The notes under the pieces: generated by a model
The model's database searches: none
What the model was told of the DNA's origin: nothing
The model's input: only the letters and a program-made list of their open reading frames with translations
Position numbers and translations under genes: made by a program
Part shown: one piece after another, positions 1 through 64,000 of the stretch
Position numbering within the stretch: position 1 is the stretch's first letter
Layout of the letters: every line of letters begins with the position of its first letter
Assembly (NCBI GenBank): GCA_002005505.1
Contig: KV908382.1
Location: 393,564-457,563 of the forward strand
Direction: 5' to 3'
DNA length: 64,000 nt
DNA from: Botryococcus braunii
Lineage: Eukaryota > Chlorophyta > Trebouxiophyceae

Positions 1-686
1 TAAGCCTCAATGTGTTGTGCCACTTCTGGAAGTCAACTAGCACCTCCAGGCGATAGGAATATGAGTGGGCAAACCCAAGGGGTAACCCGAAAGGTTGACC
101 GTATGCATTCACGGTCCTTTCCCCTTGATTAGCCATTTAGTAGCCAGCACCGACGATCGTGACTAGAAACATGAGTGTTCTGGTCCGAATCAGGGCCCGG
201 ATGTTCGGACTTACAAATTCGAACACGAAGCCCGGTGTATTGTACACCATGTACAAGGTAGACGTACTTGGGCTGACTCGGGTACGGCTACGTAGCTTGT
301 CATGATATTTAAGAGGGCCAGTCTCTTGAAGTCAACAGTTCGTTGGCTTTCCATATGACCACGGCTCACGTCTTAAGCTTGTTGTTATGTGCCTTCAATA
401 AGGCTTGTTTGAAGTCCTGGTGTCGGCGCGCATGCAGGTAATCACCTTCATTATAGCTTGCTTAGCTATAGGCTATAATTACAAGACACACACATTGTAA
501 CAAAGTTCGTTGGCTTTCTATATGACCACGGCTCACGTCTTGTTGTTATGTGCCTTCAATAAGGCTTGTTTGAAGTCCTGGTGTCGGTGCGCATGCAGGC
601 ATTATCCTTACTGACGATGGTGTTCCGTCAGCAAGGTTTGAAGTAATTGTTGAAGTAATTGTTTATTTCATGTTGTTTTATCTACA
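1..686 (+). repeat. Copia-1 5' LTR (3' portion; start lies outside the window)
   Basis: This is a direct repeat of 5624-6302 and ends in TCTACA exactly where that copy ends. It is followed at once by TGGTATCGGCC, which fits a primer-binding site for the 3' end of initiator tRNA-Met. The matching 3' LTR is 1439 bp long, so roughly half of this LTR is missing to the left of the window. The orientation is plus. Confidence 0.9.
339..599 (+). repeat. Tandem leader-exon copies in Copia-1 5' LTR
   Basis: Copy 1 is at 339-437, preceded by CAACAG and followed by GTAATC. A 68-bp connector (438-505) starts with GT and ends in TTGTAACAAAG. Copy 2 is at 506-599 and is followed by GCATTA, which has no GT. 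The same arrangement occurs in the 3' LTR at 5961-6053, 6054-6121 and 6122-6214. Copy 1 here carries a 5-bp insertion (AAGCT) relative to the others. The splice-site-like borders are visible in the sequence; that they are used is inference. Confidence 0.8.
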
Positions 687-697
687 TGGTATCGGCC
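687..697 (+). promoter_or_regulatory. Copia-1 primer-binding site
   Basis: TGGTATCGGCC directly follows the 5' LTR. TGGTATC at this position is the usual complement of the 3' end of initiator tRNA-Met in plant LTR elements. Gypsy-A, Gypsy-B and Copia-6 have the same TGGTATCGG core. Confidence 0.8.
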
Positions 698-711
698 GTA
701 CCACTGAGAAG

Positions 712-794
712 TCGATGGCAGAAGGTCCACTTCTGGCCATGTCTTTCTCAGTGGTACGGCTGCCATCTTATGGGGGAGTAAGCTGCAAAAGGTC
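712..794 (+). pseudogene. Copia-1 RNase H, upstream piece
   Basis: Translated in the frame of 4309-4707, this encodes the copia RNase H stretch DGRRSTSG...VFLSGTAA...WGSKLQK. It begins only about 15-20 bp after the primer-binding site, so gag, protease, integrase, RT and the start of RNase H have been deleted. It is separated from its continuation by the Gypsy-A insertion. The reading frame is continuous across the insertion when one copy of the 5-bp target duplication is removed. Confidence 0.8.
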
Positions 795-799
795 ACAGC

Positions 800-969
800 T
801 GTAACGTACTTCCGGATACGTCCACCGGTCGGATACGGGTCTCACGTGGTCTTCGACCACGAGGGTGCATACGACTCGGTATGCACCTGTGTGAGGTCAT
901 TCTCACACGAGCCTTTGTCTTAGATCTTGCATCTAGCCTTTGTCTTCGTGAATTTCCTAGATCATTACA
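800..969 (+). repeat. Gypsy-A 5' LTR
   Basis: 170 bp, starting TGTAACG and ending TTACA. It is nearly identical to 4139-4308, with a few substitutions such as ACCGGTCGG versus ACCCGTCGG. The similar LTRs suggest a fairly recent insertion. Confidence 0.93.
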
Positions 970-985
970 TTTGTTTTGGTATCGG

Positions 986-2061
986 CCACTGGACGACCAT
1001 TTTGATAGAGCACGGCCCCGAGCCCATGAAGGGAGGCATCAGTGTGCACTTCAAATGGTTGAGAGAAATCAGGGAAAGCTAGGCAGGGAGCAGTGGTCAA
1101 GGCCTGCTTGATTGCTTGGAAAGCAGCAGCGCAAGCAGGAGACCAGACCCAAGCCACACCTTTACGAGAAAGGCGGTGGAGAGGGGAAGCCAGCATCGCA
1201 AAGTTACGAATGAACTTGCGGAAGTAGGTGGCTAAGCCCAGGAAGGACCGTAGGTGACTGAGATTCCTAGGAGTAGGAAAATCAGCTACGGCAGCTGTCT
1301 TACGGGGATCCACTTTGATTCCATCCGCAGACACCACATGACCCAAGTACGTGACTTCGGGCTGGGCGAAGGAGCATTTCTTGAGATTGGCATAGAGCTG
1401 ATGCTCTCGCAAAAGGTCCAGAACCTTTTGCAGGTGTTCACGATGCTCCTCAGGGGTTTTACTATAGATGAGGATATCATCCAAGTAAACCAAGACAAAC
1501 TTGTGGAGGTATGGGCGGAAGATTGTATTCATAGCAGTTTGGAAAGTGGCTGGTGCATTGGTGAGACCGAAGGGTAAGACTTTCCATTGATACAAGCCCA
1601 TAGGAGTCCTGAAAGCAGTTTTCGGAACATCCTCCTCAGTGATCCGGATCTGGTGGTACCCAGAGGTGAGATCCAGACTGGTGAAGACGGTGGAGCCTTG
1701 GAGTTGGTCAAGAGTATCATCTATGCGTGGCATAGGGTACTTGTTCTTGACAGTGAGTTTGTTAAGTGCGCGATAGTCGATGACCATGCGCAAGCTCCCG
1801 TCTTTCTTTTGGACAAAGAGGATAGGTGCTCCATATGGTGACGTGGAGGGCTCTATGGATCCCTTTTCCAAAAGCAGTTTGGTCTGTCTCTCGGCTTCAA
1901 GGAATTCAGCGCAAGAGAGACGGTAGAGTGGTCGAGAAGGAGGTTTGCCATGTGGGTCAGTCAGAGGGATTGTGTGAGAGATTCCAGGACGGTCTGGGGG
2001 TAACCCAGGTACCTCGTCCGGAAAGACATCACCTACTTGGACTCGCTTCCTACCCTTAGCC
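986..2061 (-). pseudogene. Gypsy-A reverse transcriptase and start of RNase H (inverted segment)
   Basis: The minus strand encodes a gypsy RT of about 360 residues. It shows the N-terminal [16 protein letters not shown], then [41 protein letters not shown], the catalytic [13 protein letters not shown], and the thumb [15 protein letters not shown]. It ends in the first RNase H strand [12 protein letters not shown]...GRPVA. No stop interrupts it. The open frame runs on past both ends of the inverted block, to 957 in the LTR and to 2162, but those tails are not RT. Integrase lies on the opposite strand immediately downstream, so this block has flipped inside the element; about 90 residues of RNase H are missing at the break. 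Confidence 0.9.
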
Positions 2062-3746
2062 GCTGTCAAACACGATGGGCTGAGTTCCTTTCCAGGTTCC
2101 ACTTCCGTTGGGATCACGTTGCTGGCAAGTCCAATGTGGTAGCTGATGCCCTCAGTCGTCACCCTGCCCTCGGCAGTGATTACACTCCACCGTGTGGCTT
2201 TGTCAATGCCATTGTGGCATCTGGGGTCTTAGCACCCCCTGACTCTCCCTGTCTACCGAGTCCATCCCTATCTGCCGTCCTCCGTTCCGGTGTGACTTCA
2301 GGGGGGGGAGAGCCCACGAGCCTGTCATGGAAAGACAAGTTCGTGCAAGGTTATTCTGTGGACCCATGGTTCCAGGATGCTGACAACTTGAAGGGTCTCG
2401 TCTCACACGAGGGTCTCTTCCTACACGACGGCAAAGTTGCCGTACCCGATGCATTTGGGTTGCGAACCCTTCTCCTTAAGGAAATGCATGACAGCCCTTA
2501 CGCTGGACACCAAGGTGTTCGGAAGACCCTGAAGCTCATAACCCGCCATTACTGGTGGCCTTCTATGACTCAGGAAGTGGAGAGGTATGTCACCACATGC
2601 CATCGGTGCCAAAAGAACAAAGCCAGGAACCTCAAACCAGCTGGTCTCCTGCAACCTCTGGGCTTACCCTTGGCTCCTTGGCATACAGTCACGATGGACT
2701 TCATCACGCAACTACCGTCCACAGAGCGCGGCCACGATGCCATCTTCGTCATCGTGGACAAACTCTCCAAGATGGTCCATCTGGTGCCAACCACGTCGCG
2801 AGCGACAGCGGAGCAAACGGCACGCCTGTACGTTGACAACGTATGGAAGTTGCATGGGGTCCCCCAAGTGATAGTGTCTGACAGAGATCCACTCTTCACC
2901 AGCCACTTCACCAAGGCTTTGTGCGAGATACTCGGTACCAAACAGGCCATGTCCACTGCCTACCACCCTCAAACGGATGGTCAGACAGAAAGGACCAACC
3001 GGGTACTGGAAGACATGCTACGCATGTACGTGTCGTCCAGCCAAACTGACTGGGACACCAAGTTGTCCTGCGCCGAGTTTGCTATCAACAACGCAGACCA
3101 TGAAAGCACAGGAACTACTCCATTCATGCTCAACTACGGGCATCATCCATACCTCCCAGCCACGCTCCTACCCAACCTACGGGTTCCGAGCGCAGCCGGC
3201 TTCGTTCAGCGCATGCAGCGTTTGATCAATGAAGCTCGGATGGTACACCGAGTAGCCACCAACCGACAGGCACAGGCAGCCAACACAAAACGTAGGGATC
3301 TCCAGTTCTCACCAGGGGATTGGGTCCTTCTGTCCTCCAAGGACCTACGTTTTAAGCAAGGCACTCCAAAACTCCTCCCTCGCTGGGTAGGTCCATTCTA
3401 AGTCCACAAGCGCATTGGCAAACAAGCTTATGAGCTAGTTCTGCCTGCACGCTGGAGAATACATGATGTCTTTCATGTATCCAAGTTGGAACCCTACCGT
3501 AGGGATGGATCAGTTCAACCACCGCCTCCAGCGGAACTTCTCCTTGGAGAAGAGGAATACGAGGTGGACTCCATCGTAGCCCACCGTCGTGTCAATTCTC
3601 GAAATCCCGCCAAGTACGAGTACCTCGTCCAGTGGACAGGTCACTCTCCGGAACACAATACTTGGGAACCACAAGGGAATTTGACCAATGCTCCTGAAGT
3701 GCTCAAGAGGTACTGGGACACAGTCGGTCGCAACGCACCGACATAG
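2062..3746 (+). pseudogene. Gypsy-A RNase H end, integrase and chromodomain
   Basis: The frame opens with the RNase H tail ([12 protein letters not shown], then VADALSR). The integrase zinc domain follows (H-x4-H then CHRC), then the catalytic core with D in TMDFITQLP, D in VSDRDPLF and E in DGQTERTN, and a GPF module. A TAA stop at 3399-3401, just after RWVGPF, cuts the frame. The same frame resumes with the linker and a chromodomain (3547-3720: EYEVDSIVAHR...YLVQWTGHSPEHNTWEP). Chromodomains guide chromovirus integrases to particular chromatin. The premature stop removes this targeting module. Confidence 0.9.
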
Positions 3747-4138
3747 GAGGTTCACCAGCGGCCTTGAGCCCCCGCGCCTGCGGGAGGGTCGTGGTTATTT
3801 AGCCGCATACTCGAGTGCACCGAGTATCCTTCCGACTTGCAGGTCAAGTGCTAGCCTTCCTACGCCCACTCCCTCGGGTCCCAGCATAAGCTGTGTCTTA
3901 CTGCTGTAGTGACTTAGCTCTTCGAATCAGTGGCGTTTGGCCTGTGGCCGGCGTTACCCCGTTCACTGCGGGCTTATTACTTAGTACACCCAAGGCAAGT
4001 TCGAACCCAAGTCCTCGGGCCTGGTGTCTTCGGGTCGTCGCTCATCAGCTCACCATCTTGTGGATGTGTTACAGTGAGCCTTCCACACTCACCCTTTGTT
4101 AGCCTCCCAGGAGCTCGGCTAGCTAAGAGGGGGAGAAA

Positions 4139-4308
4139 TGTAACGTACTTCCGGATACGTCCACCCGTCGGATACGGGTCTCACGTGGTCTTCGACCACG
4201 AGGGTGCATACAACTCGGTATGCACCTGTGTGAGGTCATTCTCACACGAGCCTTTGTCTTAGATCTTGCATCTAGCCTTTGTCTTCGTGAATTTCCTAGA
4301 TCATTACA
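4139..4308 (+). repeat. Gypsy-A 3' LTR
   Basis: 170 bp matching 800-969, preceded by a purine-rich tract and followed by the target duplication ACAGC (4309-4313). Confidence 0.93.
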
Positions 4309-4863: not shown

Positions 4864-6302
4864 TGTTGTGATAATCTAATTGCAGATGAGACCCTAATTG
4901 TCATTATCCAATAAATTGTCATGTGACTTTGGGGACAAGGATCACTGAACAAAGTATCTAGGCCATGCCGACCTCATCTGCCACGTGGTTTGTACTTACT
5001 GAGCAATGCGAGATATGTATCTGCTGTTTATTTGTAATCTTCAAGAGTGTCTATGTACTCTTTAAGAGTGTCTGCGGGTGCTCAGACAGTTTCTAAGGCA
5101 TTCCATGCGTGAATACTTGTATAGAAGCTGTTTGGACGCTGATCTTGGTGTTCTCTCATGAACTCCAGTATGACCTTATCATTTGTCTAGTCTTATGATG
5201 ATGATGTAAAAGGTTATGGGCAGTGGCGTATCTTGTAAGCAAGCAGACAGGTCGTAAGTTCGTGCCTCTCCAGCTACAGTCCTCGACGACTGTCTGCTCT
5301 TTAGACGCATGCAACTGCATGAACAAGACTGGCATCCTTATGTGCCCAGTATCTTTCCAAACCAGTTGCTCGACTATGCGGTGATTGCAGCTTTAATAGC
5401 CCTTTCACACTAACGCGTAATCTAGATCAGATTGTACCTTATGTTCGAAATCGTCCACAACCTAACGTGTCTTAAGGTATACCTTATGTTCTCAATGGAC
5501 CCATATCCTAATAGTGCACACCTGAAGATCACTTAAAGCACAAGGCATTCAATAATAATGTTCAGAACTCGACAGAAATGCTGAGGCCTGGAATTGACTA
5601 TGCACTTAGATCTTGGCAATTCATAAGCCTCAATGTGTTGTGCCACTTCTGGAAGTCAACTAGCACCTCCAGGAGATAGGAATATGAGTGGGCAAACCCA
5701 AGGGGTAACCGAAAGGTTGACCGTATGCATTCACGGTCCTTTCCCCTTGATTAGCCATTTAGTAGCCAGCACCGACGATCGTGACTAGAAACATGAGTGT
5801 CCTGGTCCGAATCAGGACCCAGATGTTCGGACTTACAAATTCGAACACGAAGTCCGGTGTATTGTACACCATGTACAAGGTAGACGTACTTGGGCTGACT
5901 CGGGTACGGCTACGTAGCTTGTCATGGTAATTAAGAGGGCCAGTCTCTTGAAGTCAACAGTTCGTTGGCTTTCTATATGACCACGGCTCACGTCTTGTTG
6001 TTATGTGCCTTCAATAAGGCTTGTTTGAAGTCCTGGTGTCGGTGCGCATGCAGGTAATCACCTTCATTATAGCTTGCTTAGCTATAGGCTACAATTACAA
6101 GACACACACATTGTAACAAAGTTCGTTGGCTTTCTATATGACCACGGCTCACGTCTTGTTGTTATCTGCCTTCAATAAGGCTTGTTTGAAGTCCTGGTGT
6201 CGGTGCGCATGCAGGCATTATCCTTACTGACGATGGTGTTCCGTCAGCAAGGTTTGAAGTAATTGTTGAAGTAATTGTTTATTTCATGTTGTTTTATCTA
6301 CA
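4864..6302 (+). repeat. Copia-1 3' LTR
   Basis: 1439 bp, TGTTGTGATAATC...TTTTATCTACA. Its last 679 bp match the partial 5' LTR at 1-686. It contains a nested solo LTR of the Copia-3 family (5205-5574) and the tandem leader copies described under the 5' LTR. Confidence 0.88.
5205..5574 (-). repeat. Solo LTR of the Copia-3 family, inverted inside Copia-1 3' LTR
   Basis: The reverse complement matches the Copia-3 LTR from its start (TGTCGAGTTCTGAACAT here) to its end (CCCATAACCTTTTACA). It holds a single copy of the 332-bp unit that is tandemly repeated in the full Copia-3 LTRs, so it is about 370 bp instead of 695 or 1027. No clear target duplication was found. It is diverged, so this is an older copy. 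Confidence 0.75.
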
Positions 6303-7578: not shown

Positions 7579-13629
<6,051 letters not shown>

Positions 13630-13975: not shown

Positions 13976-15058
13976 TGTGGATCCTGCAAGATCCAGTTTG
14001 GATTTAATATTATAAATCACAGATAATAAGACACACACATGTGTCATCCAGATAAGTGAACACTTTCAATATCAACACCATCAAACGGTGGAAGCAGTTT
14101 AACAGGTCAGACTGATCTTCTCTTGATCTGACCAATGCATACACGATGCCAAACACAGATGAGAGTGAATGTAGATCAGGCTGTGAGTCAGAGTTTTTGA
14201 CAACAAGACGTTTCAAAAAACACTACGGAATGACTTACACGGGCAGTATACGACGCTGACCTATCTAACGATTACCTGCAAGATTTAATATTATAAATCA
14301 CAGATAATAAGACACACACATGTGTCATCCTGTGCATATTAATCCATTAGTGTCTTGCTGGTAACTATCACACGATCACTTGCATGCGAACGTGTAGCAT
14401 AAACTGCTTACCAGATAAGTGAACACTTTCAATATCAACACCATCAAACGGTGGAAGCAGTTTAACAGGTCTGCACATTAACAATAACATTATTAGTATA
14501 AGATTAACAAACAGCACTTATGGCTGTCAAAATAACGTCAGCGACGAACATACGCCTCACCAGACTGATCTTCTCTTGATCTGAACAATGCATACACGAT
14601 GCCAAACACAGATGAGAGTGAATGTAGATCAGGCTGCGAGTCAGAGTTTTTGACAACAAGACGTTTTAAAAACACTACGGAATGGCTGCTTGAGACTTCG
14701 TTCAGTCGCACCTAGTATTATCAGATCAGCGCGTTGAATTGCGCTGATCTGGCCCTTTTCACGAATTCCTATCAGAATTTAGGTTCAGAGCCTTGGAAAT
14801 TGACCCTTATCCTAATATGAGATTATCACGTTCTTAGTTACTAGGATAATCCCATGTTTGATAGCCACAAGCAACAGGAAGGACATTCTCTACCATGTTC
14901 TTAGATACCTTTATACATTAATACTTGTGGCCAAAAGACCACTGGCTGTCTGTCAAAGAGTTTCCCTTGAGTTGAGCACATGGGTCAACTATACAGCTAA
15001 TTTATTCTTGCTAGAATTGTCATCTTTGGATTGGCTTGACAGTACACAAATTCCCACA
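13976..15058 (-). repeat. Copia-2 3' LTR with intron-bearing and intronless leader copies
   Basis: 1083 bp. On the minus strand: upstream sequence, leader copy B (14685 to 14276) with introns at 14560-14471 and 14411-14330, a 42-nt GT...AG connector (14275-14234), leader copy A (14233-13984) lacking both introns, then the LTR end. Both introns start GTGAGG or GTAAGC and end CAG on the minus strand. Copy A equals copy B with exactly these removed, apart from scattered substitutions and a 12-bp gap in B. Confidence 0.9.
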
Positions 15059-20295: not shown

Positions 20296-20315
20296 GGGCG
20301 TGGGCCCATAACCAT
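20296..20315 (-). promoter_or_regulatory. Copia-2 primer-binding site, anticodon-arm (half-tRNA) type
   Basis: The minus strand reads ATGGTTATGGGCCCACG directly after the LTR end. GGTTATGGGCCCA is complementary to the anticodon arm of initiator tRNA-Met (UGGGCCCAUAACC, with the CAU anticodon), not to its 3' end. This is the half-tRNA arrangement established for Drosophila copia. Confidence 0.8.
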
Positions 20316-21413
20316 TGTGGATCCTGCAAGATCCAGTTTGGATTTAATATTATAAATCACAGATGATAAGACACACACATGTGTCATCCAGATAAGTGAA
20401 CACTTTCAATATCAACACCATCAAACGGTGGAAGCAGTTTAACAGGTCAGACTGATCTTCTCTTGATCTGAACAATGCATACACGACGCCAAACACAGAT
20501 GAGAGTGAATGTAGATCAGGCTGTGATTCAGAGCGTTTGACAACAAGACGTTTCAAAAAACACTACGGAATGACTTACACGGGCAGTATACGACACTGAC
20601 CTATCTAACGATTACCTGCAAGATCCAGTTTGGATTTAATATTATAAATCACAGATAATAAGACACACACATGTGTCATCCTGTGCATATTAATCCATTA
20701 GTGTCTTGCTGGTAACTATCACACGATCACTTCCCTGCATGCGAACGTGCAGCATAAACTGCTTACCAGATAAGTGAACACTTTCAATATCAACACCATC
20801 AAACGGTGGAAGCAGTTTAACAGGTCTGCACATTAACAATAACATTATTAGTATAAGATTAACAAACAGCACTTATGGCTGTCAAAATAACGTCAGCGAC
20901 GAACATACGCCTCACCAGACTGATCTTCTCTTGATCTGAACAATGCATACACGATGCCAAACACAGATGAGAGTGAATGTAGATCAGGCTGTGAGTCAGA
21001 GTTTTTTACAACAAGACGTTTCAAAAACAATACGGAATGACTGCTTGAGACTTCGTTCAGTCGCACCTACTATTATCAGATCAGCGCGTTGAATTGCGCT
21101 GTTCTGCCCCTTTTCACGAATTCCTATCAGAATTTAGGTTCAGAGCCTTGGAAATTGACCCTTATCCTAATATGAGTTTATCACGTTATTAGCTACTAGG
21201 ATAATCCCATGTTTGATAGCCACAAGCAACAGGAAGGACATTCTCTACCATGTTCTTAGATACCTTTATACATTAATACTTGTGGCCAAAAGACCACTGG
21301 CTGTCTGCCAAAGAGTTTCCCTTGAGTTGAGCACATGGGTCAACTATACAGCTAATTTATTCTTGCTAGAATTGTCATCTTTGGATTGGCCTGACAGTAC
21401 ACAAATTCCCACA
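20316..21413 (-). repeat. Copia-2 5' LTR with intron-bearing and intronless leader copies
   Basis: 1098 bp. Leader copy B spans 21040-20616 with introns 20915-20826 (90 nt) and 20766-20681 (86 nt). The connector is 20615-20574 and intronless copy A is 20573-20324. Subtracting the introns from B leaves 249 nt against 250 nt for A. The LTR ends in the small hairpin GGATCTTGCAGGATCC just before ACA and the primer-binding site. Confidence 0.9.
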
Positions 21414-24242: not shown

Positions 24243-25269
24243 TGTTGAGTTGTGAACATACATTATAGAATGCCTTGTGCTTTAGGTGATCTTCAAATGT
24301 ACATTATTAGGATACGGGTCCACTATCCACATAAGGTACCTCAAGACACGTTCGGATGAGGTCTATTTCGAACATAAGGTACAATTTAGATTACGCGTTA
24401 GTGTGAAAGGACTATTAAAGCTGCGATCACCGCATAGTCGAGCAACTGGTTTGTAAAGATACTGGGCACATAAGGATGCCAGTCTTGTTCATGCAGTTGC
24501 ATGTGTCTAAAGAGCAGACAGTCGTCAAGGACTGTAGCTGGAGAGGCACGAACTTACGACCTGTCTGCTTGCTTACAGGTGCGGTGACGCAGGGTGTGTA
24601 TTGGTAATGTGTTAATGTTTGATTGCTTGTTTGTAAGTGAACCATCTTAGTGTACAATCAAGTCTCCCAAACAGCTAAGGGACGGAGTCTTGATTGAGTA
24701 TAGGAAGGTACTTGCGTTCAGCCGTCAGGAGCTTATCCGTGTGTAGATGCTCATTGACAGATCAACATGTAACGGAACTGGTTTGGAAAGATACTGGGCA
24801 CATAAGGATGCCAGTCTTGTTCATGCAGTTGCATGTGTCTAAAGAGCAGACAGTCGTCAAGGACTGTAGCTGGAGAGGCACGAACTTACGACCTGTCTGC
24901 TTGCTTACAGGTGCGGTGACGCAGGGTGTGTATTGGTAATGTGTTAATGTTTGATTGCTTGTTTGTAAGTGAACCATCTTAGTGTACAATCAAGTCTCCC
25001 AAACAGCTAAGGGACGGAGTCTTGATTGAGTATAGGAAGGTACTTGCGTTCAGCCGTCAGGAGCTTATCCGTGTGTAGATGCTCATTGACAGATCAACAT
25101 GTAACGGAACTGGTTTGGAAAGATACTGGGCACATAAGGATGCCAGTCTTGTTCATGCAGTTGCATGTGTCTAAAGAGCAGACAGTCGTCAAGGACTGTA
25201 GCTGGAGAGGCACGAACTTACGACCTGTCTGCTTGCTTACAGGTGATGCCGAATGCCCATAACCTAACA
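24243..25269 (+). repeat. Copia-3 5' LTR with three leader copies
   Basis: Leader copies of 120 bp at 24459-24578, 24791-24910 and 25123-25242, each preceded by AAAG and followed by GT. Two 212-bp connectors (24579-24790, 24911-25122) run from GTGCGG to AAAG. The repeat period is 332 bp. The LTR ends CCCATAACCTAACA, which can pair with the adjoining primer-binding site. Confidence 0.9.
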
Positions 25270-31828: not shown

Positions 31829-32001
31829 TTAGTCGGTTTTTGCACTAACATGTGGTGCAGCCACACATGAACCTTACATTCGAATGCATATGGAGGGATA
31901 ACGTTCCCCAGCAGCACTTGCCTCCGGACTTGTGGGTGTATGACCCGCTGCAGCAAGTCATCCGGAGCTGTTAATGCGATGCAGCACTTCTGCCATTTTC
32001 T

Positions 32002-39385: not shown

Positions 39386-40080
39386 TGTTGAGTTGTGAAC
39401 ATACATTATAGAATGCCTTGTGCTTTAGGTGATCTTCAAATGTACATTATTAGGATACGGGTCCACTATCCACATAAGGTACCTCAAGACACGTTCGGAT
39501 GAGGTCTATTTCGAACATAAGGTACAATTTAGATTACGCGTTAGTGTGAAAGGACCATTAAAGCTGCGATCACCGCATAGTCGAGCAACTGGTTTGGAAA
39601 GATACTGGGCACATAAGGATGCCAGTCTTGTTCATGCAGTTGCATGTGTCTGAAGAGCAGACAGTCGTCAAGGACTGTAGCTGGAGAGGCACGAACTTAC
39701 GACCTGTCTGCTTGCTTATAGGTGCGGTGACGCAGGGTGTGTATTGGTAATGTGTTCATGTTTGATTGCTTGTTTGTAAGTGAACCATCTTAGTGTACAA
39801 TCAAGTCTCCCAAACAGCTAAGGGACGGAGTCTTGATTGAGTATAGGAAGGTACTTGCTTTCAGCCGTCAGGAGCTTATCGGTGTGTAGATGCTCATTGA
39901 CAGATCAACATGTAACGGAACTGGTTTGGAAAGATACTGGGCACATAAGGATGCCAGTCTTGTTCATGCAGTTGCATGTGTCTAAAGAGCAGACAGTCGT
40001 CAAGGACTGTAGCTGGAGAGGCACGAACTTACGACCTGTCTGCTTGCTTAAAGGTGATGCCGAATGCCCATAACCTAACA
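39386..40080 (+). repeat. Copia-3 3' LTR with two leader copies
   Basis: 695 bp. Leader copies at 39602-39721 and 39934-40053 with one 212-bp connector between them. It lacks exactly one 332-bp unit relative to the 5' LTR. Target duplication GGATA follows (40081-40085). Confidence 0.92.
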
Positions 40081-49840: not shown

Positions 49841-50744
49841 TTTAGCGTAATGGCATCATCAAAACAGAACTTGTAGAATTTGGAATTGATATAAAAATCC
49901 CTGTGACTCACACTCTTTGAGTAAGTGAACTGTGCCCAAGTGAAAGCTTGTTGAAGTGGACGAAACACGACCAAGCAAACGGGACAGGAGCTTGATAAGG
50001 GCACTCAAGACTTTGTTACAATAACTACTAAACTAACGATGTTGCATTACCTGTGACTCACACTCTTTGAGTAAGTGAACTGTGCCCAAGTGAAAGCTTG
50101 TTGAAGTGGACGAAACACGACCAAGCAAACGGGACAGGAGCTTGATAAGGGCACTCAAGACTGACTGATCCCTTGGACACTTCCTATTTATACTAACTAA
50201 GGAGACTACTCATTTATTAGCCTCCTGACAGGTTTGCAACTCCAGATCTTAAAAGAGTACGGGCACGATCAAGTTTGCATGCCTCAGTACTATGCACTGG
50301 AATTTCAATGTACCTCATGATTCGACATGGTCGTCGATGAATAGTACGAATCTCGGTCGATGCTAATCTCGAATCTAAGTGACTCGAAACTTTAACTCAC
50401 CACCGATACGAACCTCGAATCAAACACCAAGGACCGCAGGACTTAAAGTCTCACGATCGATGAGATCCGGTATGAAGTATATCTTACTAGAAAACAACCA
50501 GAAAACAGCCCGAGATTGTACCAGGGCCACTATAAATCACTATGAGTGTCAATTTACCTTAAAGTACCATACAGTACAAACACACCCAAGTGAACTAAGA
50601 TTGTACCTTAATGTTTATGAGCATTCTTAATATTATAAACCCTTGAAATGAATTGATGTGGCTCACAAACATGCTAAGATGAAATGACCCAACATGTTGA
50701 AGAAATACCTAAGGTATACATGTTAGTGTCCATTTTTCTAACAC
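49841..50744 (-). repeat. Copia-6 3' LTR with tandem leader copies
   Basis: Leader copy B 50160-50051 (after CAGTCAG, followed by GTAATG), connector 50050-50011 (40 nt, GTAATG...TTGTAACAAAG), copy A 50010-49901 (followed by GGATTT). Both copies are 110 nt and appear identical. No internal intron is present. Confidence 0.88.
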
Positions 50745-51023: not shown

Positions 51024-52473
51024 TGTGGGTTCTGCAACCCAAAGCCGATGGTGTTACCATTCACAGATGATGGATGTCGAATGACATGATCACAATCACC
51101 GATTTAATGAGCATGCGGAAATTTCTCAACACAGTTACGAACGCATGCCGAACATAAGGATGCGCAGGTGAGACACATAACAAGCTTGCTTGATAAGCAA
51201 GCTTGCTTGGAGAATACTCCATTGAATGTCTGTTACAAAGGAAATGCATCGAGACGTGCAAATAAAGATATGAACTAAACGTGCACCACTTGACTAGTCT
51301 TACCTGCAACCCAAAGCCGATGGTGTTACCATTCACAGATGATGGATGTCGAATGACATGATCACAATCACCTGTAATAGTACTACTTGTCAATGCTTTG
51401 GGTTCAACAAATGATTAAAGACTAAGTGATACACGCTTCTCACTAGTCGGGGCTTACCGATTTAATGAGCATGCGGAAATTTCTCAACACAGTTACGAAC
51501 GCATGCCGAACATAAGGATGCGCAGGTGAGACACATAACAAGCTTGCTTGATAAGCAAGCTTGCTTGGAGAATACTCCATTGAATGTCTGACCTGCTGCC
51601 CCGATCACGAAGCCATAAACCAGACTTGTTGACCAATCTAATATACGCGTTAACGTCCACTTTTGGATAAAGGTTCGATTCTAGGCCAATCATCCAAGTC
51701 AATCGAGTGAGCTCAGTCTCCCTTCACAATAGTAATGTGATCAAAGGAAGACTAATTGCCACCGACAGAGACCACTCTTATCAAGAGATTGCTTGATCAG
51801 ATTTCTTAAGTACCAACCAAATCCCATGAAAGCAATTGCAATCTCCATCTACTAGCCGCAAGTATCTATAAGCCACACACAGCTACTAGCCACATTTAAG
51901 TAACGACAACAAAGGACATAAAGCTAAGGATCTGAATAGCATGAACCTGTACAAATAACAAGTACCACGTGATCTGTAGTTCGACTAGAGTCATAGGAAT
52001 AAACAGCTTGCACCTAAGCAACTGGTCCCCTGAGACCTAATCTCATCATAGGTATAGGAAACATAGTCAATGCCTATTGCATTCGACAAGGCAATACACA
52101 AGTCATTACATCCAAGTATGACTTCAACTCAATAACAGTCAATTGCTCACTGTATGCGCGTGCAAATGCATATGCATGCTTAATACGATTGTAAAAACCG
52201 TATACCGAGAACATGAAGTATCAACCTATGAAGTATCATCGAGTTTATGATTAACAACCATATCCAATAGTGTCCCATAGCACCTTATTGACATCTTCTT
52301 TGGAATAATTATGGTTGTGTGATTACACAACACAATTAACGTATTTTAAGATTAAGAGTTGTAGTAAGTGTGCCAACACAATATGAACCAGTTCACCCAT
52401 GAAATCGCAATGATAATCCATATCATGATCATTCATAGATTATCTGTAGGTGAATCATGGTTCATATCCAACA
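51024..52473 (-). repeat. LARD 3' LTR with intron-bearing and intronless leader copies
   Basis: Minus-strand order: copy B 51587-51304 with a GT-AG intron at 51457-51372 (86 nt), connector 51303-51230 (74 nt, GTAAGA...TTTGTAACAG), copy A 51229-51032 (198 nt, no intron). Copy B minus its intron is also 198 nt. The LTR ends in hairpin GGGTTGCAGAACCC then ACA. Confidence 0.92.
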
Positions 52474-55400
52474 ATCTTCCCCTTTGGCACATTTGCTCAA
52501 CTTGCAAATTAGGCACGTTCCTCGAAACTTTGAAGCATATACACTGAACATTAATCCCTTACTCGATTGAGTACATGTCCGTAAATCTCATAATGAAATT
52601 TACGTGCAAGATCCATATATGTGTTTGGGCAATCACTGACCTGATATCTGAATACAATTAAGAATTATACCTCCGGACGTATACTTCTTCTGAGCAATCA
52701 CTGCCTAGATACGCAAGTGCTCAAGCACTCAATCGTAGGACAATAACTGCCTAGATTAAACTCCACACAAGTACAACGTCAGCTGAGCTGATAAGCAGAT
52801 GCAAACGCAAACAAGCGCAGATATAGCACATATAGGCGAAGAGACAAGCGTAAAGAAGACGCCCAGAGACACGCGCCGAGAAGACGCGCCCAGAGAGGAC
52901 GGGCAGAGAAGAGGCGCAGGGACAAGCCCAGACACACGCGCCGAGAAGACTCGTCCAGAGAGGACGGGCAGAGAAGACGCGCAGAGACAAGCCCAGACAC
53001 ACGCGCCGAGTAGACGCGCCCAGAGAGGACGGGCAGAGAAGACGCGCAGAGACAAGCCCAGACACACGCGCCGAGAAGACGCGCCCAGAGAGGACGGGCA
53101 GAGAAGACGCGCAGAGAGAAGCCCAGAAACACGCGCCAAGAAGACGCGCCCAGAGAGGACGGGCAGAGAAGACGCGCAGAGAGAAGCCCAGAAACACGCG
53201 CCAAGAAGACGCGCCCAGAGAGGACGGGCAGAGAAGACGCGCAGAGAGAAGCCCAGACACACGCGCCAAGAAGACGCGCCCAGAGAGGACGGGCAGAGAA
53301 GACGCGCAGAGAGAAGCCCAGAAACACGCGCCGAGAAGACGCGCCCAGAGAGGACGGGCATAGAAGACGCGCAGAGACAAGCCCAGACACACGCGCCGTG
53401 AAGACGCGCCCAGAGAGGACGGGCAGAGAAGATGCGATGAGATATGCTCAGAGACACGTGCCGAGAAGACGCGCAGAGAAGACGGGCAGAGAAGACGCTC
53501 AGAGACATAAGCATAGAAATGCGCCTCAGGTGAGTAGATAAACATAGGTATGCAGCAATAGGACTACACCCCAGCTTGAGGTGACAAATTGGTGCCGGAT
53601 CACTATGATCCAATATATTAATATTCTCAAGATAATGCAACACCACTATGGTGCTCATAGGAGACTAATCAATGATAACCATAGGCCAAGTTTTAGTGCT
53701 CACGCACCTCAAGGAAATACCTTCCCCTGCTTCATTGCTTCCCCTCAAACAAGTAACACCTTAGGACTTTTCACGCTTTGTCTAGTGCTACCACTAACTC
53801 TTCCGCTGAGTAATCTATAAATACCACTAACTCTTCTGCTGAGTAATCTATATATACCACTAACTCTTCCGCTGAGTAGTAGTACAAACAAACGACTTAA
53901 GGGATCTCCGCTTATTATCAGCAAAGCGGATACCCAAGAGTACACGATCACCGTGCACAAGACCCACGACACCATGCACAAGCGGGATGGGATACTCTCC
54001 ATTTGCTCACACACAACGAAATGACATGCTAAAAGCATTTATGCTAATGTCACTTTAATTCACAAGTCTTTGATAGGCATGAGTGCGGAACATCGTTCCA
54101 TGATCAACTCTTGTAATATCAAACCGTATCTCAACAACATCAAGCTCCAGTACCATAAACAACAAGCATATCATGCACCAAACTGCAATGCACTCTAATT
54201 TAAAAGGCTCTACTATGCATGAACTCATGTAACCAGTAGATGACTTAACAACGATGACATACACATATAGGATCCGTATAGGACACATATAGGTCCGGAC
54301 TACTCACGCACTCTACAGAGCGAGGTGTATTAACTTGCTTCCCCTTAAACCTTGGGAAAATACAACACACAAAGCAATGCCTAAATGCTTAAAGATCAAG
54401 GCTCAAGTGATCCTAAACAAAATACCAGCCAATAACCATGGATAACATAAGATTCCACTGTAAACCGCTTGAAGATTCGAGTCATGGATCTATCGGAGTA
54501 TCCGATAGTACCTCGATCGACAAAATTCATTAGTCGACTCGACACGGAGTCTCAATCCTAAAAGCGAGTGTCTACCACTCGATCTCACTCGACTCGAACC
54601 GTAGAACCAGACATCGACGCGCAGTCTCTCATTACCGTGTGACAACCAGACCTGACGCGTTTTTATGTCAGTGAGGCTGCAGAGCCTTCCTGAGCTTCCC
54701 TGAACCAGGGAAGACCACTCAAGACACACAGCATACTCCAGACCTATTTTAAAATTATATCTAATGCGATGAAATGCCTAAAGATCACTGAACATGGGTA
54801 TTTAAGGGTAGACGAGCAAAAGGCGCAAGAGACGCAACGATGTGGGCAAACACTGAACCATCCAGAGCTCATTCCAGTTTCAACCGAAACTTAAATAACT
54901 TGGCCTAATATTGCATACTAATAAGAAGTACATTAGAGAGAATTCCCAGCCCTTCTCTATGGGCTGCATTTCCTCAACTACCCTTTATAAAGGTTCATTA
55001 TCCTTGGCAGATGTTTATCTGACTCCAGGGAGTACACAGCCACTGAACATCAGTGACCCTCTCCTTCATCATATCTCTGCTCATCAGAAAGATTATTTAA
55101 TGTCAAAGAAAGATATATGTCAGGTAGCATTGAAGGAATCAGCCAATCATCAATCAGGACCCTCTTCATGCAATCTGCATTTCACAAATCAAACACTAAG
55201 CTCCTACCAAAGAGCTAATATTATCAGTATTTTTTTTTTTGTCATCATTACCAGAAACCAAAGTACATGACTGGAGGAACCAAATATGGATTTCCTCCCT
55301 ATGTTCCATAGTTTTCCCCAAGTTTTAGGAACCCTCCTCAACTCATGTAAGGTAAAAAAAACCAGGCCCTCTTGGAGATCCACTATCATGTCCAACAGCA

Positions 55401-56261: not shown

Positions 56262-56279
56262 CGGTGGGCCCATAACCAT

Positions 56280-57729
56280 TGTGGGTTCTGCAACCCAAAG
56301 CCGATGGTGTTACCATTCACAGATGATGGATGTCGAATGACATGATCACAATCACCGATTTAATGAGCATGCGGAAATTTCTCAACACAGTTACGAACGC
56401 ATGCCGAACATAAGGATGCGCAGGTGAGACACATAACAAGCTTGCTTGATAAGCAAGCTTGCTTGGAGAATACTCCATTGAATGTCTGTTACAAAGGAAA
56501 TGCATCGAGACGTGCAAATAAAGATATGAACTAAACGTGCACCACTTGACTAGTCTTACCTGCAACCCAAAGCCGATGGTGTTACCATTCACAGATGATG
56601 GATGTCGAATGACATGATCACAATCACCTGTAATAGTACTACTTGTCAATGCTTTGGGTTCAACAAATGATTAAAGACTAAGTGATACACGCTTCTCACT
56701 AGTCGGGGCTTACCGATTTAATGAGCATGCGGAAATTTCTCAACACAGTTACGAACGCATGCCGAACATAAGGATGCGCAGGTGAGACACATAACAAGCT
56801 TGCTTGATAAGCAAGCTTGCTTGGAGAATACTCCATTGAATGTCTGACCTGCTGCCCCGATCACGAAGCCATAAACCAGACTTGTTGACCAATCTAATAT
56901 ACGCGTTAACGTCCACTTTTGGATAAAGGTTCGATTCTAGGCCAATCATCCAAGTCAATCGAGTGAGCTCAGTCTCCCTTCACAATAGTAATGTGATCAA
57001 AGGAAGACTAATTGCCACCGACAGAGACCACTCTTATCAAGAGATTGCTTGATCAGATTTCTTAAGTACCAACCAAATCCCATGAAAGCAATTGCAATCT
57101 CCATCTACTAGCCGCAAGTATCTATAAGCCACACACAGCTACTAGCCACATTTAAGTAACGACAACAAAGGACATAAAGCTAAGGATCTGAATAGCATGA
57201 ACCTGTACAAATAACAAGTACCACGTGATCTGTAGTTCGACTAGAGTCATAGGAATAAACAGCTTGCACCTAAGCAACTGGTCCCCTGAGACCTAATCTC
57301 ATCATAGGTATAGGAAACATAGTCAATGCCTATTGCATTCGACAAGGCAATACACAAGTCATTACATCCAAGTATGACTTCAACTCAATAACAGTCAATT
57401 GCTCACTGTATGCGCGTGCAAATGCATATGCATGCTTAATACGATTGTAAAAACCGTATACCGAGAACATGAAGTATCAACCTATGAAGTATCATCGAGT
57501 TTATGATTAACAACCATATCCAATAGTGTCCCATAGCACCTTATTGACATCTTCTTTGGAATAATTATGGTTGTGTGATTACACAACACAATTAACGTAT
57601 TTTAAGATTAAGAGTTGTAGTAAGTGTGCCAACACAATATGAACCAGTTCACCCATGAAATCGCAATGATAATCCATATCATGATCATTCATAGATTATC
57701 TGTAGGTGAATCATGGTTCATATCCAACA
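56280..57729 (-). repeat. LARD 5' LTR
   Basis: Same as the 3' LTR, offset by 5256 bp: intron at 56713-56628, copy A 56485-56288. It is followed on the minus strand by the anticodon-type primer-binding site. Confidence 0.93.
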
Positions 57730-57734
57730 GTCAG

Positions 57735-60700: not shown

Positions 60701-62899
60701 ATGCTTGACATTATGCAAGAACAAGGAACTGCCAGACTCGAGGAACACTTGCATGGAACCTTCTCCTATAATTTCCTCTGACTTGCCATTTGCCACAATC
60801 AGACGTTGTGGCACATCAAACTTGACATAATTTATCATGTTGTCATTTGAAGGAGAAATGTGATTAGTTGAACCTGAATCTATAAGCCAAGCAGGAAGAG
60901 AAGGTTGGGAGATTGCTGTATCCCTTTGTACACAATTAGTTTGTGCCCTCCTCTCCTGTGCTGCAAGCTTAGGACACGTTGCTTTGGTGTGTCCTGGATT
61001 CCTGCAGTACTGGCAAATTAGTACAGGCCTTCCCTGCTGTTGAAATGCAGGTTGCCCTGTCCCTGAATTTTCACGGTTAGTATTTTTAGGCACTTCTGCC
61101 TGGTGAGCACCTGGACCAGCCCCACCTGAACCACCTTGCCTGCCTGCAGGCTGACCACCCCCACCTTGATTCCTATAAGGTTTGGGGTTTGAGGTGTTTG
61201 GAGGATTATATGGCTTCTTTGCTTGAAGATCCATATATGTTAACTCAAGAACATGCTGGAGTTGGTGCACATTTGGATAGTTGTTGCACACAGACAGCTG
61301 TAAACGCCTATCTACCTCATACTCTTTAGTGAGGCCTTCAATAATCATAGAGCACTGGCAAACCTCAGAACACTGCTCTCCTAGTGATTTGAGGTTGTTT
61401 GCAATTTTCCTGCACCTTAACACGTAGTCAGATGGTTTTTCACCTGGCTTCATGGCAAATAACTTTTGCTCCCTGTGGAGGCTCATCAGCCTAGCTGCTG
61501 CTCTAGCGTTAAACACCTGCAGCAGCTTATTCCACATATGGTAAGCACTTGTCAAGTCAGTAATCTGAACAGAATACTGCTCAGTACATGCTTGAGTGAT
61601 AATGGTTTGAGCCTTGAAATCATCATAAGCTCCCTGATAATCATCATGAACACAGTAGTTGACATTCATTTCCCACAGCATAGCATACACTTGCTTTGTC
61701 CATGTCAACCAATTGGTATCATTCAACTTGACTAACTCTATCTTTGGAGTTAACTTCTGATGAGAAGAGAACGAAGGACCAGTAGTTGGATTTATGTTGG
61801 GCAGACGAGGAATACCTACGTTTGGAAATTGACCTTGCCCAGCACTATATGGTGGCCCCTGACTATAAGGAGGACCACCCCAACCACCACCACCTGGTCC
61901 ACAAGGACCGCCTGGACCACCAGGACCGCCTGGTCCTCTAGGACCACCAGGACCACCCCCACCAAAGCCACCAGGAACATTCCCACCAGAGCCCGGATAG
62001 ACAGGGTATTGCGGGTAGTTGCCTGAGACTGGTGGAGGATGCCAAATCGAGCTTGCTCCTCCAGGGGGACCCCCACTGTATGGTGGCCCACCTCCAGGAG
62101 GTCCACTGCCTGAGCTGTATGGGTAGCCACCACCAGGAGGGCCTCCAGCTGGAATTGCTGAAGCTGACGTTGACACTCCAAAGTTGGATGGTACCTGCAC
62201 ACTAGCTGGCTGAACCAAGGTTGGATTAGAAATTTGGTTCAACGTTGAGGCAGGTAGTGAAATGGGGATCATGCCCCCAGTAGCCAGTGGTAGATAAACA
62301 GTTGCCTGTGCACTAGTTACTGATGTTGCTGGAACTATTGCGCCACTAGTAATAACTGGAACGCTAGCTGGCTGGACTGTCACAGCAGGATATTGTGAAA
62401 CGGGTACTTGTATAGGACCACTAGTAAGTGTCCTGGACCCTGAAACTGCAGACTGTGAAGGTCTGCGCAGAACCCTAGGTGCGCTTGAAACAGGAACTGG
62501 ATTAATCCTGACTGCTCTTCTGACACTGCTAGGATCTAAAGGAAGGTTGGAAGGCATACCACTAGGAGGAGAGATGCCTGAGCTTACAGCAGGAGCAGCT
62601 ACAGCTAGAGGTTGACCAGCAGGATCAGCAGGAAGAGACTCAGAGTGATCATAATCCCCGTATAGATACTCATCACTTACCTCCCCTGCGTGGCGCCCCT
62701 CAGCTTCACTGTCCTCCGTTGAGCTGTTGGCACCTGCACCTGCACTAGAGGTGTAGCCCCTTGAGTCTCCATGAGTAGAGTAAGATTGTTCGTAACTTTC
62801 ATTGTTATAAACATTTGAGGGATCATCCTCAATGACAATGGGTACTTCATAGGATTCTTCAGGATTAGCATAGGGTGGCACAGTATATGTACCACTCAT
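57735..62899 (-). pseudogene. Copia-6 gag-pol polyprotein
   Basis: ATG 62899. An N-terminal Pro/Gly/Ser-rich extension of about 370 residues comes first, then gag (KLNDTNWLTWTKQVYAML), zinc knuckle CQYCRNPGHTKATC, protease WLIDSGSTNHIS, pre-integrase LWHQRLGHLSPAYM...CSACLHGKQ. Integrase follows (HMDLMGPVSP, RTDNGTEFSG, QQNGKIERLNRT), then RT (RFKARLVAKGFKQIYGVDYT, MDVSTAFLHGDLEEKVFIQQ, YGLKQAPRAW). A one-base frameshift near 58560-58575 follows APRAW; the other frame continues with VYLLLYVDDILIVSQ and RNase H (FVDSDYAGDLDGRKSTSGFV, ALSTVEAEF) to the LARD insertion at 57734. Copia gag normally lacks such a long Pro-rich N-terminal part. Confidence 0.92.
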
Positions 62900-63242
62900 T
62901 GCATGAAAATAACGTAGTCAGCACAAACTCTAACAGGTAGAGCTCTCAAGCGACCACCCCAGCTTTCCCAAAGGAAAGCTGCCTTCACCAATAACCAACT
63001 TCTCTCCCACTGCCTTAGCCACAAGGGCTTAGACAATCGAGAAGTCCAACCAGAGTAACCCACCAGAAGACAGCAAGAGTCCTTCTACCTGACACGGTGG
63101 TCTGCCTAGACCCCGTGCAGGCTTAGGTGCTCTTTAAGTCTTAAAAGAGTGCTATGAAAAGCAGGACGTAGAAAGCTGCGAGGCTTCTTTACGTAGAAAG
63201 ATCCCGTGCGCCGGGAGACGATAATACCATAAGCGATTTAAT
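62900..63242 (-). other. Copia-6 leader between primer-binding site and gag
   Basis: 343 bp of non-coding leader with CTTTCC/GGAAAGC inverted motifs near 62965-62980. No upstream ORF of note. Confidence 0.6.
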
Positions 63243-63253
63243 CGCCGATACCA

Positions 63254-64000
63254 TTTAGCGTAATGGCATCATCAAAACAGAACTTGTAGAATTTGGAATT
63301 GATATAAAAATCCCTGTGACTCACACTCTTTGAGTAAGTGAACTGTGCCCAAGTGAAAGCTTGTTGAAGTGGACGAAACACGACCAAGCAAACGGGACAG
63401 GAGCTTGATAAGGGCACTCAAGACTTTGTTACAATAACTACTAAACTAACGATGTTGCATTACCTGTGACTCACACTCTTTGAGTAAGTGAACTGTGCCC
63501 AAGTGAAAGCTTGTTGAAGTGGACGAAACACGACCAAGCAAACGGGACAGGAGCTTGATAAGGGCACTCAAGACTGACTGATCCCTTGGACACTTCCTAT
63601 TTATACTAACTAAGGAGACTACTCATTTATTAGCCTCCTGACAGGTTTGCAACTCCAGATCTTAAAAGAGTACGGGCACGATCAAGTTTGCATGCCTCAG
63701 TACTATGCACTGGAATTTCAATGTACCTCATGATTCGACATGGTCGTCGATGAATAGTACGAATCTCGGTCGATGCTAATCTCGAATCTAAGTGACTCGA
63801 AACTTTAACTCACCACCGATACGAACCTCGAATCAAACACCAAGGACCGCAGGACTTAAAGTCTCACGATCGATGAGATCCGGTATAAGTATATCTTACT
63901 AGAAAACAACCAGAAAACAGCCCGAGATTGTACCAGGGCCACTATAAATCACTATGAGTGTCAATTTACCTTAAAGTACCATACAGTACAAACACACCCA
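63254..64000 (-). repeat. Copia-6 5' LTR (incomplete, leaves the window)
   Basis: Matches 49841-50744 over its 747 visible bases, with rare differences (one GA missing near 63885). Leader copies A 63314-63423 and B 63464-63573 with connector 63424-63463. Confidence 0.92.

What the first reader, a model, noticed from the sequence alone, without database searches (positions are those of the whole stretch)
1..64000. Shared LTR architecture in five copia-type families: AG-exon-GT connector AG-exon copy, then primer site
Copia-1, Copia-2, Copia-3, Copia-6 and LARD all have a leader segment in tandem. The upstream copy is bounded by AG and GT, the connector runs GT...AG (68, 42, 212, 40 and 74 nt), and in four families the copy next to the primer site lacks a following GT. 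Connectors in three families end in nearly the same TTGTAACA(AA)G. Four different leader sequences with the same layout suggest a mechanism. One model: the upstream copy donates a 5' splice site for a spliced, PBS-less mRNA, while the downstream copy stays in genomic RNA. Another is repeated capture of spliced strong-stop products.
Basis: inference. Interest (0 to 1): 0.9.

Follow-up and report, generated by a model that had tools for sequence, protein, structure and literature searches.

The report
Retrotransposon LTRs that keep introns
In what looks like a green alga, copia-type mobile elements carry their RNA leader twice in each terminal repeat, once split by introns and once already spliced, and shared mutations indicate that the spliced copy is rewritten from spliced RNA again and again, which would let the element keep introns that copying through RNA should erase.

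Summary
Tandem leaders are real and the rule among sampled LTRs of this genome, probably a green alga: two copies at 17 of 20 primer-site-anchored loci and in at least one LTR of 19 of 20 RVT_2-anchored loci. In Copia-2 and LARD the upstream copy (U) is split into 3 and 2 exons by GT-AG introns; the downstream copy (D) is the same leader exactly spliced (69 of 74 introns in 60 LTRs are GT-AG). U and D evolve in concert: 1.5% apart within a Copia-2 LTR, about 10% between elements, introns 12-16%, with agreement up to the splice junctions. D is therefore repeatedly copied from spliced RNA. The "AG" before the copies is not a conserved acceptor; the acceptor that fits is the CAG ending D. Connectors end in TGTAA, the chlorophyte poly(A) signal, 4-8 nt before D in all 13 leader groups. 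Best model: RNA starts at U, its 5' end is spliced (removing connector and D), its 3' end forms just inside D, and spliced strong-stop cDNA lands there, recreating U-connector-D. One-copy intronless LTRs (two elements) and one three-copy LTR fit as by-products. No RNA data were available.

The parts
337..437 (+). Copia-1 5' LTR: upstream leader copy U (single exon), CAG|GT at its end
438..503 (+). Copia-1 5' LTR: connector, GTAATC...TTGTAACAA (TGTAA starts 8 nt before D)
504..598 (+). Copia-1 5' LTR: downstream copy D, ends CAG|GCATT
5959..6214 (+). Copia-1 3' LTR: U 5959-6053, connector 6054-6119, D 6120-6214
20916..21042 (-). Copia-2 5' LTR: U exon 1
20826..20915 (-). Copia-2 5' LTR: intron 1, GTGAGG..GTGCAG, 90 nt
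20767..20825 (-). Copia-2 5' LTR: U exon 2
20681..20766 (-). Copia-2 5' LTR: intron 2, GTAAGC..GCACAG, 86 nt
20616..20680 (-). Copia-2 5' LTR: U exon 3, ends TTGCAG|GTAATC
20576..20615 (-). Copia-2 5' LTR: connector ending GTGTA (TGTAA spans the junction with D)
20324..20575 (-). Copia-2 5' LTR: D, exons 1-2-3 joined without introns, ends TTGCAG|GATCCACA
20300..20314 (-). Copia-2 primer site TGGTTATGGGCCCAC (recalled as the half-tRNA-iMet type)
13984..14687 (-). Copia-2 3' LTR: U exons 14687-14561, 14470-14412, 14329-14276; connector 14275-14236; D 14235-13984 (U exon 3 has a small deletion, so one search printed its end at 14282 and D's end at 14001; the ends given here are read from the sequence)
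24444..25242 (+). Copia-3 5' LTR: three leader copies (24444-24578, 24776-24910, 25108-25242) with two identical connectors ending ATGTAACGG
39587..40053 (+). Copia-3 3' LTR: U 39587-39721, connector 39722-39918, D 39919-40053
5211..5574 (-). Copia-3-type LTR remnant with a single leader copy
63314..63575 (-). Copia-6 5' LTR: U 63575-63464, connector 63463-63426 (..TTGTAACAA), D 63425-63314
49901..50162 (-). Copia-6 3' LTR: U 50162-50051, connector 50050-50013, D 50012-49901
56288..56845 (-). LARD 5' LTR: U exon 1 56845-56714, intron 56713-56628, U exon 2 56627-56560, connector 56559-56488 (..TTGTAAC), D (joined) 56487-56288
51032..51589 (-). LARD 3' LTR: U exon 1 51589-51458, intron 51457-51372, U exon 2 51371-51304, connector 51303-51232, D (joined) 51231-51032
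56264..56278 (-). LARD primer site TGGTTATGGGCCCAC

Best explanation
These LTRs are built to survive splicing. Transcription starts at the first base of U. The 5' end of the RNA is spliced: leader introns go, and a last intron running from the donor after U (CAG|GT) to the acceptor formed by the end of D (CAG|X) removes connector plus D. The RNA then begins exon1-exon2-...-X-primer site. At the 3' end the same LTR is left unspliced and is cleaved and polyadenylated just inside D, directed by the UGUAA at the connector's end, so the RNA ends with roughly the first 9-13 nt of the leader (a very short R). Strong-stop cDNA, made from the spliced 5' end, lands on that short R and primes through connector, U introns and U3. 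The new LTR is again U3-U(with introns)-connector-D(spliced)-X. The introns ride in the 3' copy of U, and D is rewritten from spliced RNA. Shown from sequence: the split and joined forms, GT-AG, concerted evolution, CAG and TGTAA constraints, one-copy and three-copy forms. Inferred: start site, splicing, poly(A) site and strand-transfer steps.
For: 1) D equals U with its introns removed: over 60 LTRs an intron-aware alignment with no splice-site preference found 74 introns, 69 GT-AG within the exact ambiguity. 2) Concerted evolution in 22 Copia-2 LTRs: U-D within an LTR mean 1.48% (6 of 22 identical); between elements U-U 9.85%, D-D 9.51%, intron 1 16.2%, intron 2 11.8%, U3 15.3%. 40 of 54 informative columns agree in all 22 LTRs, 52 of 54 in at least 20. 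3) Tree: U and D of one LTR are sisters in 18 of 21; a U clade is rejected, p-AU 0.0011, with 7 identical sets left free. 4) Agreement reaches the junctions: at variable positions within 10 nt of the two junctions 359 of 360 and 219 of 220 cells agree (20 of 21 LTRs at each). 5) Last U exons, whose end becomes the proposed acceptor in D, have AG|GT in 16 of 16 representatives, internal exons in 0 of 13 within the same window; with one per unrelated leader 11 of 11 and 0 of 6, Fisher 8e-5. 6) TGTAA next to D in 14 of 14 representatives, 0 of 14 at U; UGUAA peaks near -17 from the cleavage site in chlorophytes (PMC1868727, passages). 7) Best TATA-like match starting 25-37 nt upstream scores 5.86 at U, 5.00 at D, shuffle mean 4.68, maximum 5.36. 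8) U-D differences are 0 in both LTRs of 7 of the 13 elements examined, with the two LTRs alike. 9) By-products: two elements with one-copy intronless LTRs at both ends, one with a 5-bp target duplication; one three-copy LTR of 60.
Against: No transcript, RACE or poly(A) data: start site, splice junctions and 3' end are predictions. The model needs the same introns to be spliced at the RNA's 5' end and left in at its 3' end; not tested. TATA matches are weak in several families (L016, L023, L018, L053, LARD). The host is taken as a chlorophyte by inference; UGUAA as poly(A) signal was not tested in this genome. In one search the 5' LTR of Copia-1 has a U that differs from its D (8 of 102, including a 6-nt insertion), L017 has a U-D difference of 6 of 112 in both LTRs, L024 one in both, and Copia-3 and L016 one or two, so U and D do not always match. 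Five of 74 introns are not GT-AG and 4 of 60 LTRs lack TGTAA at the expected place. One-copy LTRs could also come from recombination between U and D in a parent element. Searches for a poly(A)-tailed retrocopy and for partly spliced LTRs, one exact pattern each, found 0.
Confidence: 0.72

Rival explanations
1. Conventional long-R element with occasional refresh. R runs from U's start to the poly(A) site in D's first bases (as in foamy viruses, splice donor ahead of poly(A) signal), unspliced RNA is the usual template and lands on U, and only now and then is a spliced RNA copied, which resets D.
For: An unspliced template that lands on U would also regenerate the same LTR (inference). Foamy viruses have the donor upstream of the poly(A) signal within R (PMC3694450, background section). 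All structural facts fit.
Against: U-D differences are 0 in both LTRs of 7 of 13 elements while Copia-2 elements differ by about 10%, so resets must be frequent. Unspliced cDNA landing on the RNA's end in D would give three-copy LTRs: 1 of 60.
Confidence: 0.17
2. One reading: U starts a spliced mRNA without primer site, D starts the genomic RNA.
For: Two RNA pools with different 5' ends and splicing are known for barley BARE (PMC3735527, abstract and passages).
Against: D would be copied from D and U from U, so they should diverge; they evolve in concert up to the splice junctions. D begins and ends where a spliced U leader does.
Confidence: 0.04
3. DNA-level process: ordinary tandem duplication plus gene conversion between the two copies.
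For: Direct repeats can convert or collapse; three-, two- and one-copy Copia-3 LTRs exist.
Against: Duplication does not remove introns precisely. Conversion would have to stop at each intron without loss of agreement beside the junctions. The one-copy form is in both LTRs of two elements, one with target duplication, so it is not a later deletion at one LTR.
Confidence: 0.05
4. A one-time capture of a spliced leader in the ancestor of each family, with no present role.
For: Would explain exact splicing once per family.
Against: U and D track each other across subfamilies that have diverged by about 10% and more; the same layout recurs in 13 leader groups.
Confidence: 0.02

Closest known systems
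Ty1/copia LTR retrotransposons, including Drosophila copia with half-tRNA-iMet priming (recalled)
   Same: RVT_2 polyproteins in the surveyed loci, 5-bp target duplications and TG..CA ends where found, primer site TGGTTATGGGCCCAC that I recall as the half-tRNA type.
   Different: Leader present twice per LTR, split and spliced; introns inside the presumed transcribed part of the LTR.
Barley BARE (Ty1/copia)
   Same: Spliced RNAs and different RNA pools (PMC3735527, abstract and passages).
   Different: BARE is reported to replicate only unspliced TATA1 RNA, and the authors state that retrotransposons must avoid packaging and copying spliced RNA; its 104-nt intron is in the coding region. Here spliced RNA appears to be copied and the LTR absorbs it.
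Foamy (spuma) retroviruses
   Same: Splice donor upstream of the poly(A) signal inside R; U1 at the donor suppresses 5' poly(A) (PMC3694450, abstract and background section).
   Different: No duplicated or pre-spliced leader that I know of (recalled).
HIV-2/SIV leader intron in R-U5 (recalled; only a search listing seen)
   Same: A splice event within the 5' leader of an LTR element.
   Different: No pre-spliced copy in the LTR that I know of (recalled).
Dinoflagellate retrogenes with relict spliced leaders
   Same: A leader added by RNA splicing is fixed in DNA by reverse transcription (PMC6050394, PMC12014239, search listing with start of abstract only).
   Different: Trans-spliced leader on host genes, not an LTR rebuilt in every cycle.

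Membership tests
Ty1/copia LTR retrotransposon | Copia-type reverse transcriptase (RVT_2) in the element | tested here: met
   Window ORFs of Copia-2 and Copia-6 match RVT_2; survey loci L009-L028 were chosen by RVT_2, though the LTR pairs seen in L011 and L013 lie antisense to the ORF. No copia ORF was shown for Copia-1, Copia-3 and LARD, nor for L031-L070, which are LTR stretches only.
Ty1/copia LTR retrotransposon | Paired LTRs, TG..CA, 5-bp target duplication | tested here: met
   LARD and Copia-3 in the window and the one-copy element L057 have TG..CA and 5-bp duplications; none was found for Copia-1, Copia-2, Copia-6 (the first and last touch the window's edge) and L068: 3 of 7 tested.
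Ty1/copia LTR retrotransposon | tRNA primer site after the LTR | tested here: inconclusive
   TGGTTATGGGCCCAC follows the LTR in several families (95 genome hits, reversed control 0), TGGTATCGG in others. Match to a tRNA gene was recalled, not tested.
Foamy-virus-like LTR | Splice donor upstream of poly(A) signal in R | tested here: inconclusive
   Donor CAG|GT, then TGTAA at the connector end, in the 13 leader groups; function not tested.
Foamy-virus-like LTR | Genomic RNA keeps the region downstream of the donor | not testable with these tools
   Needs RNA; the U-D evidence points the other way.
Spliced-leader (trans-splicing) system | Leader supplied in trans to many unrelated genes | not tested
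   Exons and introns lie in cis in one LTR, so a trans donor is not needed.

The most novel reading that the evidence does not exclude
A replication cycle in which the spliceosome makes one of the two terminal repeats of the genomic RNA: the 5' repeat exists only after splicing, and the matching 3' repeat is a pre-spliced DNA copy that each round of reverse transcription writes anew. One CAG serves as exon end in U and as splice acceptor in D, and UGUAA sits inside the last intron so that it is lost at the 5' end and used at the 3' end. This lets copia elements of an alga carry up to three leader introns per LTR through RNA.
Probability: 0.6. Interest if true: 0.9.

Novelty: new variant of a known kind. 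Interest (0 to 1): 0.8.

Why it matters
Reverse transcription of spliced RNA should delete introns, and retroelements are described as having to keep spliced RNA out of replication (PMC3735527, passages). Here is a layout in which the repeat is rebuilt whether or not the leader is spliced. It explains how introns can persist in an LTR, suggests how 5' poly(A) could be avoided, and leaves a sequence record (U against D) of copying through spliced RNA. The same signature (a split leader followed by its spliced copy, with a poly(A) signal between) can be looked for in any genome without RNA data.

Tried and rejected
Rejected: a conserved splice acceptor at the connector's end (no AG shared there in Copia-3, L013, L018 and L023; elsewhere the AG is the leader's own first bases). 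Rejected: L057 and L068 as plain exceptions without repeats; they are one-copy intronless LTRs, and their 3' LTRs have the same form. Rejected as weak: reading L017 as a mosaic of two subfamilies; its D has no close match among the five relatives compared. Mended: the first AG comparison sought AG|GT only at last exons; applies one window to both kinds of exon end and gives the same 16 of 16 and 0 of 13.

Tried without result: poly(A)-tailed retrocopies of the most abundant family (one exact pattern, 0 hits); LTRs in Copia-2 relatives with only the first intron lost (one exact pattern, 0 hits); genome-wide counts of spliced against unspliced exon junctions (not completed); relatives in IMG/VR (none); papers on LTR introns or duplicated leaders (nothing in the listings describes this; most subscription journals are not held). 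That it is a green alga rests on chlorophyll a/b-binding genes and best matches to Lhca3-type photosystem I chains; the tool names no species, and which entries are algal is recalled.

Rows dropped before counts: L069 (rearranged) was left out of the 60-LTR set, and L057 and L068 have no D to count. In that set the 4 TGTAA misses are L058 and L062 (changed motif), L009 (start masked by N; TGTAA 13 nt upstream) and L064 (alignment began inside the leader). The 2 misses for CAG at D are C3_3 (AAG) and L013 (the window missed a CAG that one search prints). The miss for AG|GT at U is L014, so L025 stood for that group. The 5 introns not GT-AG are L036, L052, L058, L048 and L070.
Full report
What was checked. 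The window is G000:C48:393564-457563 of a 176-Mb, 989-contig genome. The genome has chlorophyll a/b-binding genes (35 matches), and one such exon matches Lhca3-type photosystem I chains best. I take the host as a chlorophyte green alga; that is an inference, the tools name no species. Self-comparison gives the LTR pairs of five elements: Copia-1 (+), Copia-2 (-), Copia-3 (+), Copia-6 (-) and LARD (-). LARD lies inside Copia-6, and Copia-1 and Copia-3 hold nested elements.

The observation. All five LTRs hold a tandem leader, and all five named donors are CAG|GT. The downstream copy (D) is the same leader joined exactly at those junctions.

Survey. Two samples of 20 loci were drawn from the genome. 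Of 20 RVT_2-anchored 10-kb loci (chosen from the 150 best matches listed, themselves 150 scored of 2658 candidates), 16 show U and D by self-comparison (15, and L013). L011's and L013's pairs lie antisense to the longest ORF. Three more (L020, L021, L028) contain a two-copy LTR of a known family. L022 has a connector plus D at one end and a one-copy end at the other. Of 20 primer-site-anchored loci (chosen from 95 hits, leaving out places already fetched or listed for Copia-2 and LARD), 17 show two copies, one (L069) is rearranged, and two (L057, L068) have one copy. A third set, 20 further LTRs of the Copia-2 family (from 41 listed hits), was chosen by similarity and is not independent; all 20 have the full layout. 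In all, 60 LTRs with U and D fall into 13 groups whose leaders do not match each other by blastn over half their length; three of these (Copia-2, L051/L060, L053) share exon layout and are probably old relatives.

Splicing signature. An intron-aware alignment that gives no bonus for splice sites found 74 introns in the 60 LTRs; 69 are GT-AG within the exact ambiguity. The five exceptions are L036, L052, L058 and L048, which look like single changes at or beside a junction, and L070, whose U carries an extra internal duplication.

Concerted evolution. In 22 Copia-2 LTRs (three pairs come from one element each) the U exons, joined in the script, differ from D of the same LTR by 1.48% on average (median 1.0, maximum 6.8; 6 of 22 identical). 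Between elements U-U is 9.85%, D-D 9.51%, U3 15.3%, intron 1 16.2%, intron 2 11.8%, connector 7.4%. Of 54 informative columns, 40 agree between U and D in all 22 LTRs and 52 in at least 20; 5 of 54 do not beat shuffled pairings at 0.05. In a tree of 21 elements U and D of one LTR are sisters in 18, and a tree with all U together is rejected (p-AU 0.0011, 7 identical sets left free). At variable positions within 10 nt of the two splice junctions, U and D agree in 359 of 360 and 219 of 220 cells, including the first base after junction 1 and position -3 of both (20 of 21 LTRs at each junction; the D position was chosen by best match, which leans slightly towards agreement). Gene conversion blind to RNA would not be expected to stop so exactly at introns. 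A cDNA of spliced RNA does so by nature.

Signals. TGTAA begins 4-8 nt before D's first base in 14 of 14 representatives (mononucleotide shuffles: mean 0.13, maximum 4) and never at the same place before U; over all 60 LTRs it is present in 56. UGUAA is described as the poly(A) signal of chlorophytes, peaking near -17 from the cleavage site, from sequence statistics (PMC1868727, passages), and lies 10-20 nt upstream of mapped sites in Chlamydomonas (PMC4701671, passages; there, sites inside introns lacked it). The RNA's 3' end is therefore predicted about 9-13 nt inside D. TATA-like matches starting 25-37 nt upstream score above shuffles at U and not at D (5.86 and 5.00; shuffle mean 4.68, maximum 5.36). 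The last U exon has AG|GT at its end in 16 of 16 representatives, internal exons in 0 of 13 within the same window; counting one per unrelated leader, 11 of 11 and 0 of 6 (Fisher 8e-5). This is expected if the end of the last exon, copied into D, has to serve as the 3' splice site of the final intron (connector + D).

Mechanism. If the genomic RNA starts at U and is spliced at its 5' end (leader introns, then connector + D), its 5' end reads spliced leader + X + primer site, which is identical to D + X at the end of the LTR. Strong-stop cDNA from it can pair with the first bases of D at the RNA's 3' end and be extended into the unspliced connector, U and U3. The product is the same LTR, introns included, with D rewritten from spliced U. 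An unspliced RNA that lands on U would rebuild the same LTR too. Forms that the model predicts as failures are seen. Spliced cDNA landing on U gives a one-copy intronless LTR: two elements, L057 and L068, have this at both ends (100% over 633 nt; 94.9% over 630 nt), and L057 has a 5-bp target duplication (none was found for L068). Neither 5' LTR holds TGTAA from 400 nt before the leader to the primer site. Unspliced cDNA landing on D gives three copies: the 5' LTR of Copia-3, 1 of 60 LTRs, with identical connectors; its own 3' LTR has two, so a later loss or gain also took part. At insertion U and D often match: of 13 elements compared, 7 have 0 differences within both LTRs and between them (Copia-6, LARD, L010, L015, L018, L019, L026); L014 has 0 within each LTR; L024 has 1 in both LTRs and L017 has 6 in both; Copia-1 (8 and 1), Copia-3 (1 and 2) and L016 (2 and 0) differ by LTR. 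For LARD and L016 only the first exon was compared there.

What is inferred. No RNA was seen. Start site, splicing, poly(A) site and strand transfer are inferred from DNA. How the same introns are removed at one end and kept at the other is open; foamy viruses, with a donor ahead of the poly(A) signal, solve a related problem by U1 binding and RNA structure (PMC3694450, abstract and background section).

Known or new. Where a polyprotein was seen these are Ty1/copia elements. I found no description of a split and pre-spliced double leader in LTRs in ten paper searches of open-access text, of which seven bore on this; I saw listings, and passages or sections of five papers (PMC1868727, PMC4701671, PMC5542766, PMC3735527, PMC3694450). 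BARE, the nearest copia case, is reported to copy unspliced RNA, and its authors say that retrotransposons must avoid copying spliced RNA (PMC3735527, passages). I file this as a new variant of a known kind.

Noticed in passing
window 26509-36402, with ORF 32771-35251 (+): A Ty3-type element with short (about 150-177 nt) terminal repeats seems nested in Copia-3; its pol ORF has a PHD finger between RNase H and integrase. No internal repeat of its short LTRs is listed.
   Followed up: partly
window 800-4308: A second short-LTR element (170-nt repeats, 99% alike) with an RVT_1 ORF on the minus strand lies inside Copia-1.
   Followed up: no
window 52861-53507: Ten copies of a 65-bp tandem repeat inside LARD, open in several frames.
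   Followed up: no
L070 400-1035: U of this LTR carries a 190-bp internal duplication that would make a new small exon; D does not contain it, so D predates it or the exon is skipped.
   Followed up: partly
L022 880-1150 and 7290-7520: Element whose 5' end has connector (TTGTAATAG) plus D while its 3' end has U3 joined straight to the leader; an asymmetric or rearranged case.
   Followed up: partly
G000:C1:1122040 (in L027) and G000:C10:281355: RVT_2 hits in open frames of over 3400 codons, about twice the usual copia polyprotein here.
   Followed up: no
window 10119-10344: Long TG/GT-rich microsatellite; similar runs are in L029 and L062.
   Followed up: no
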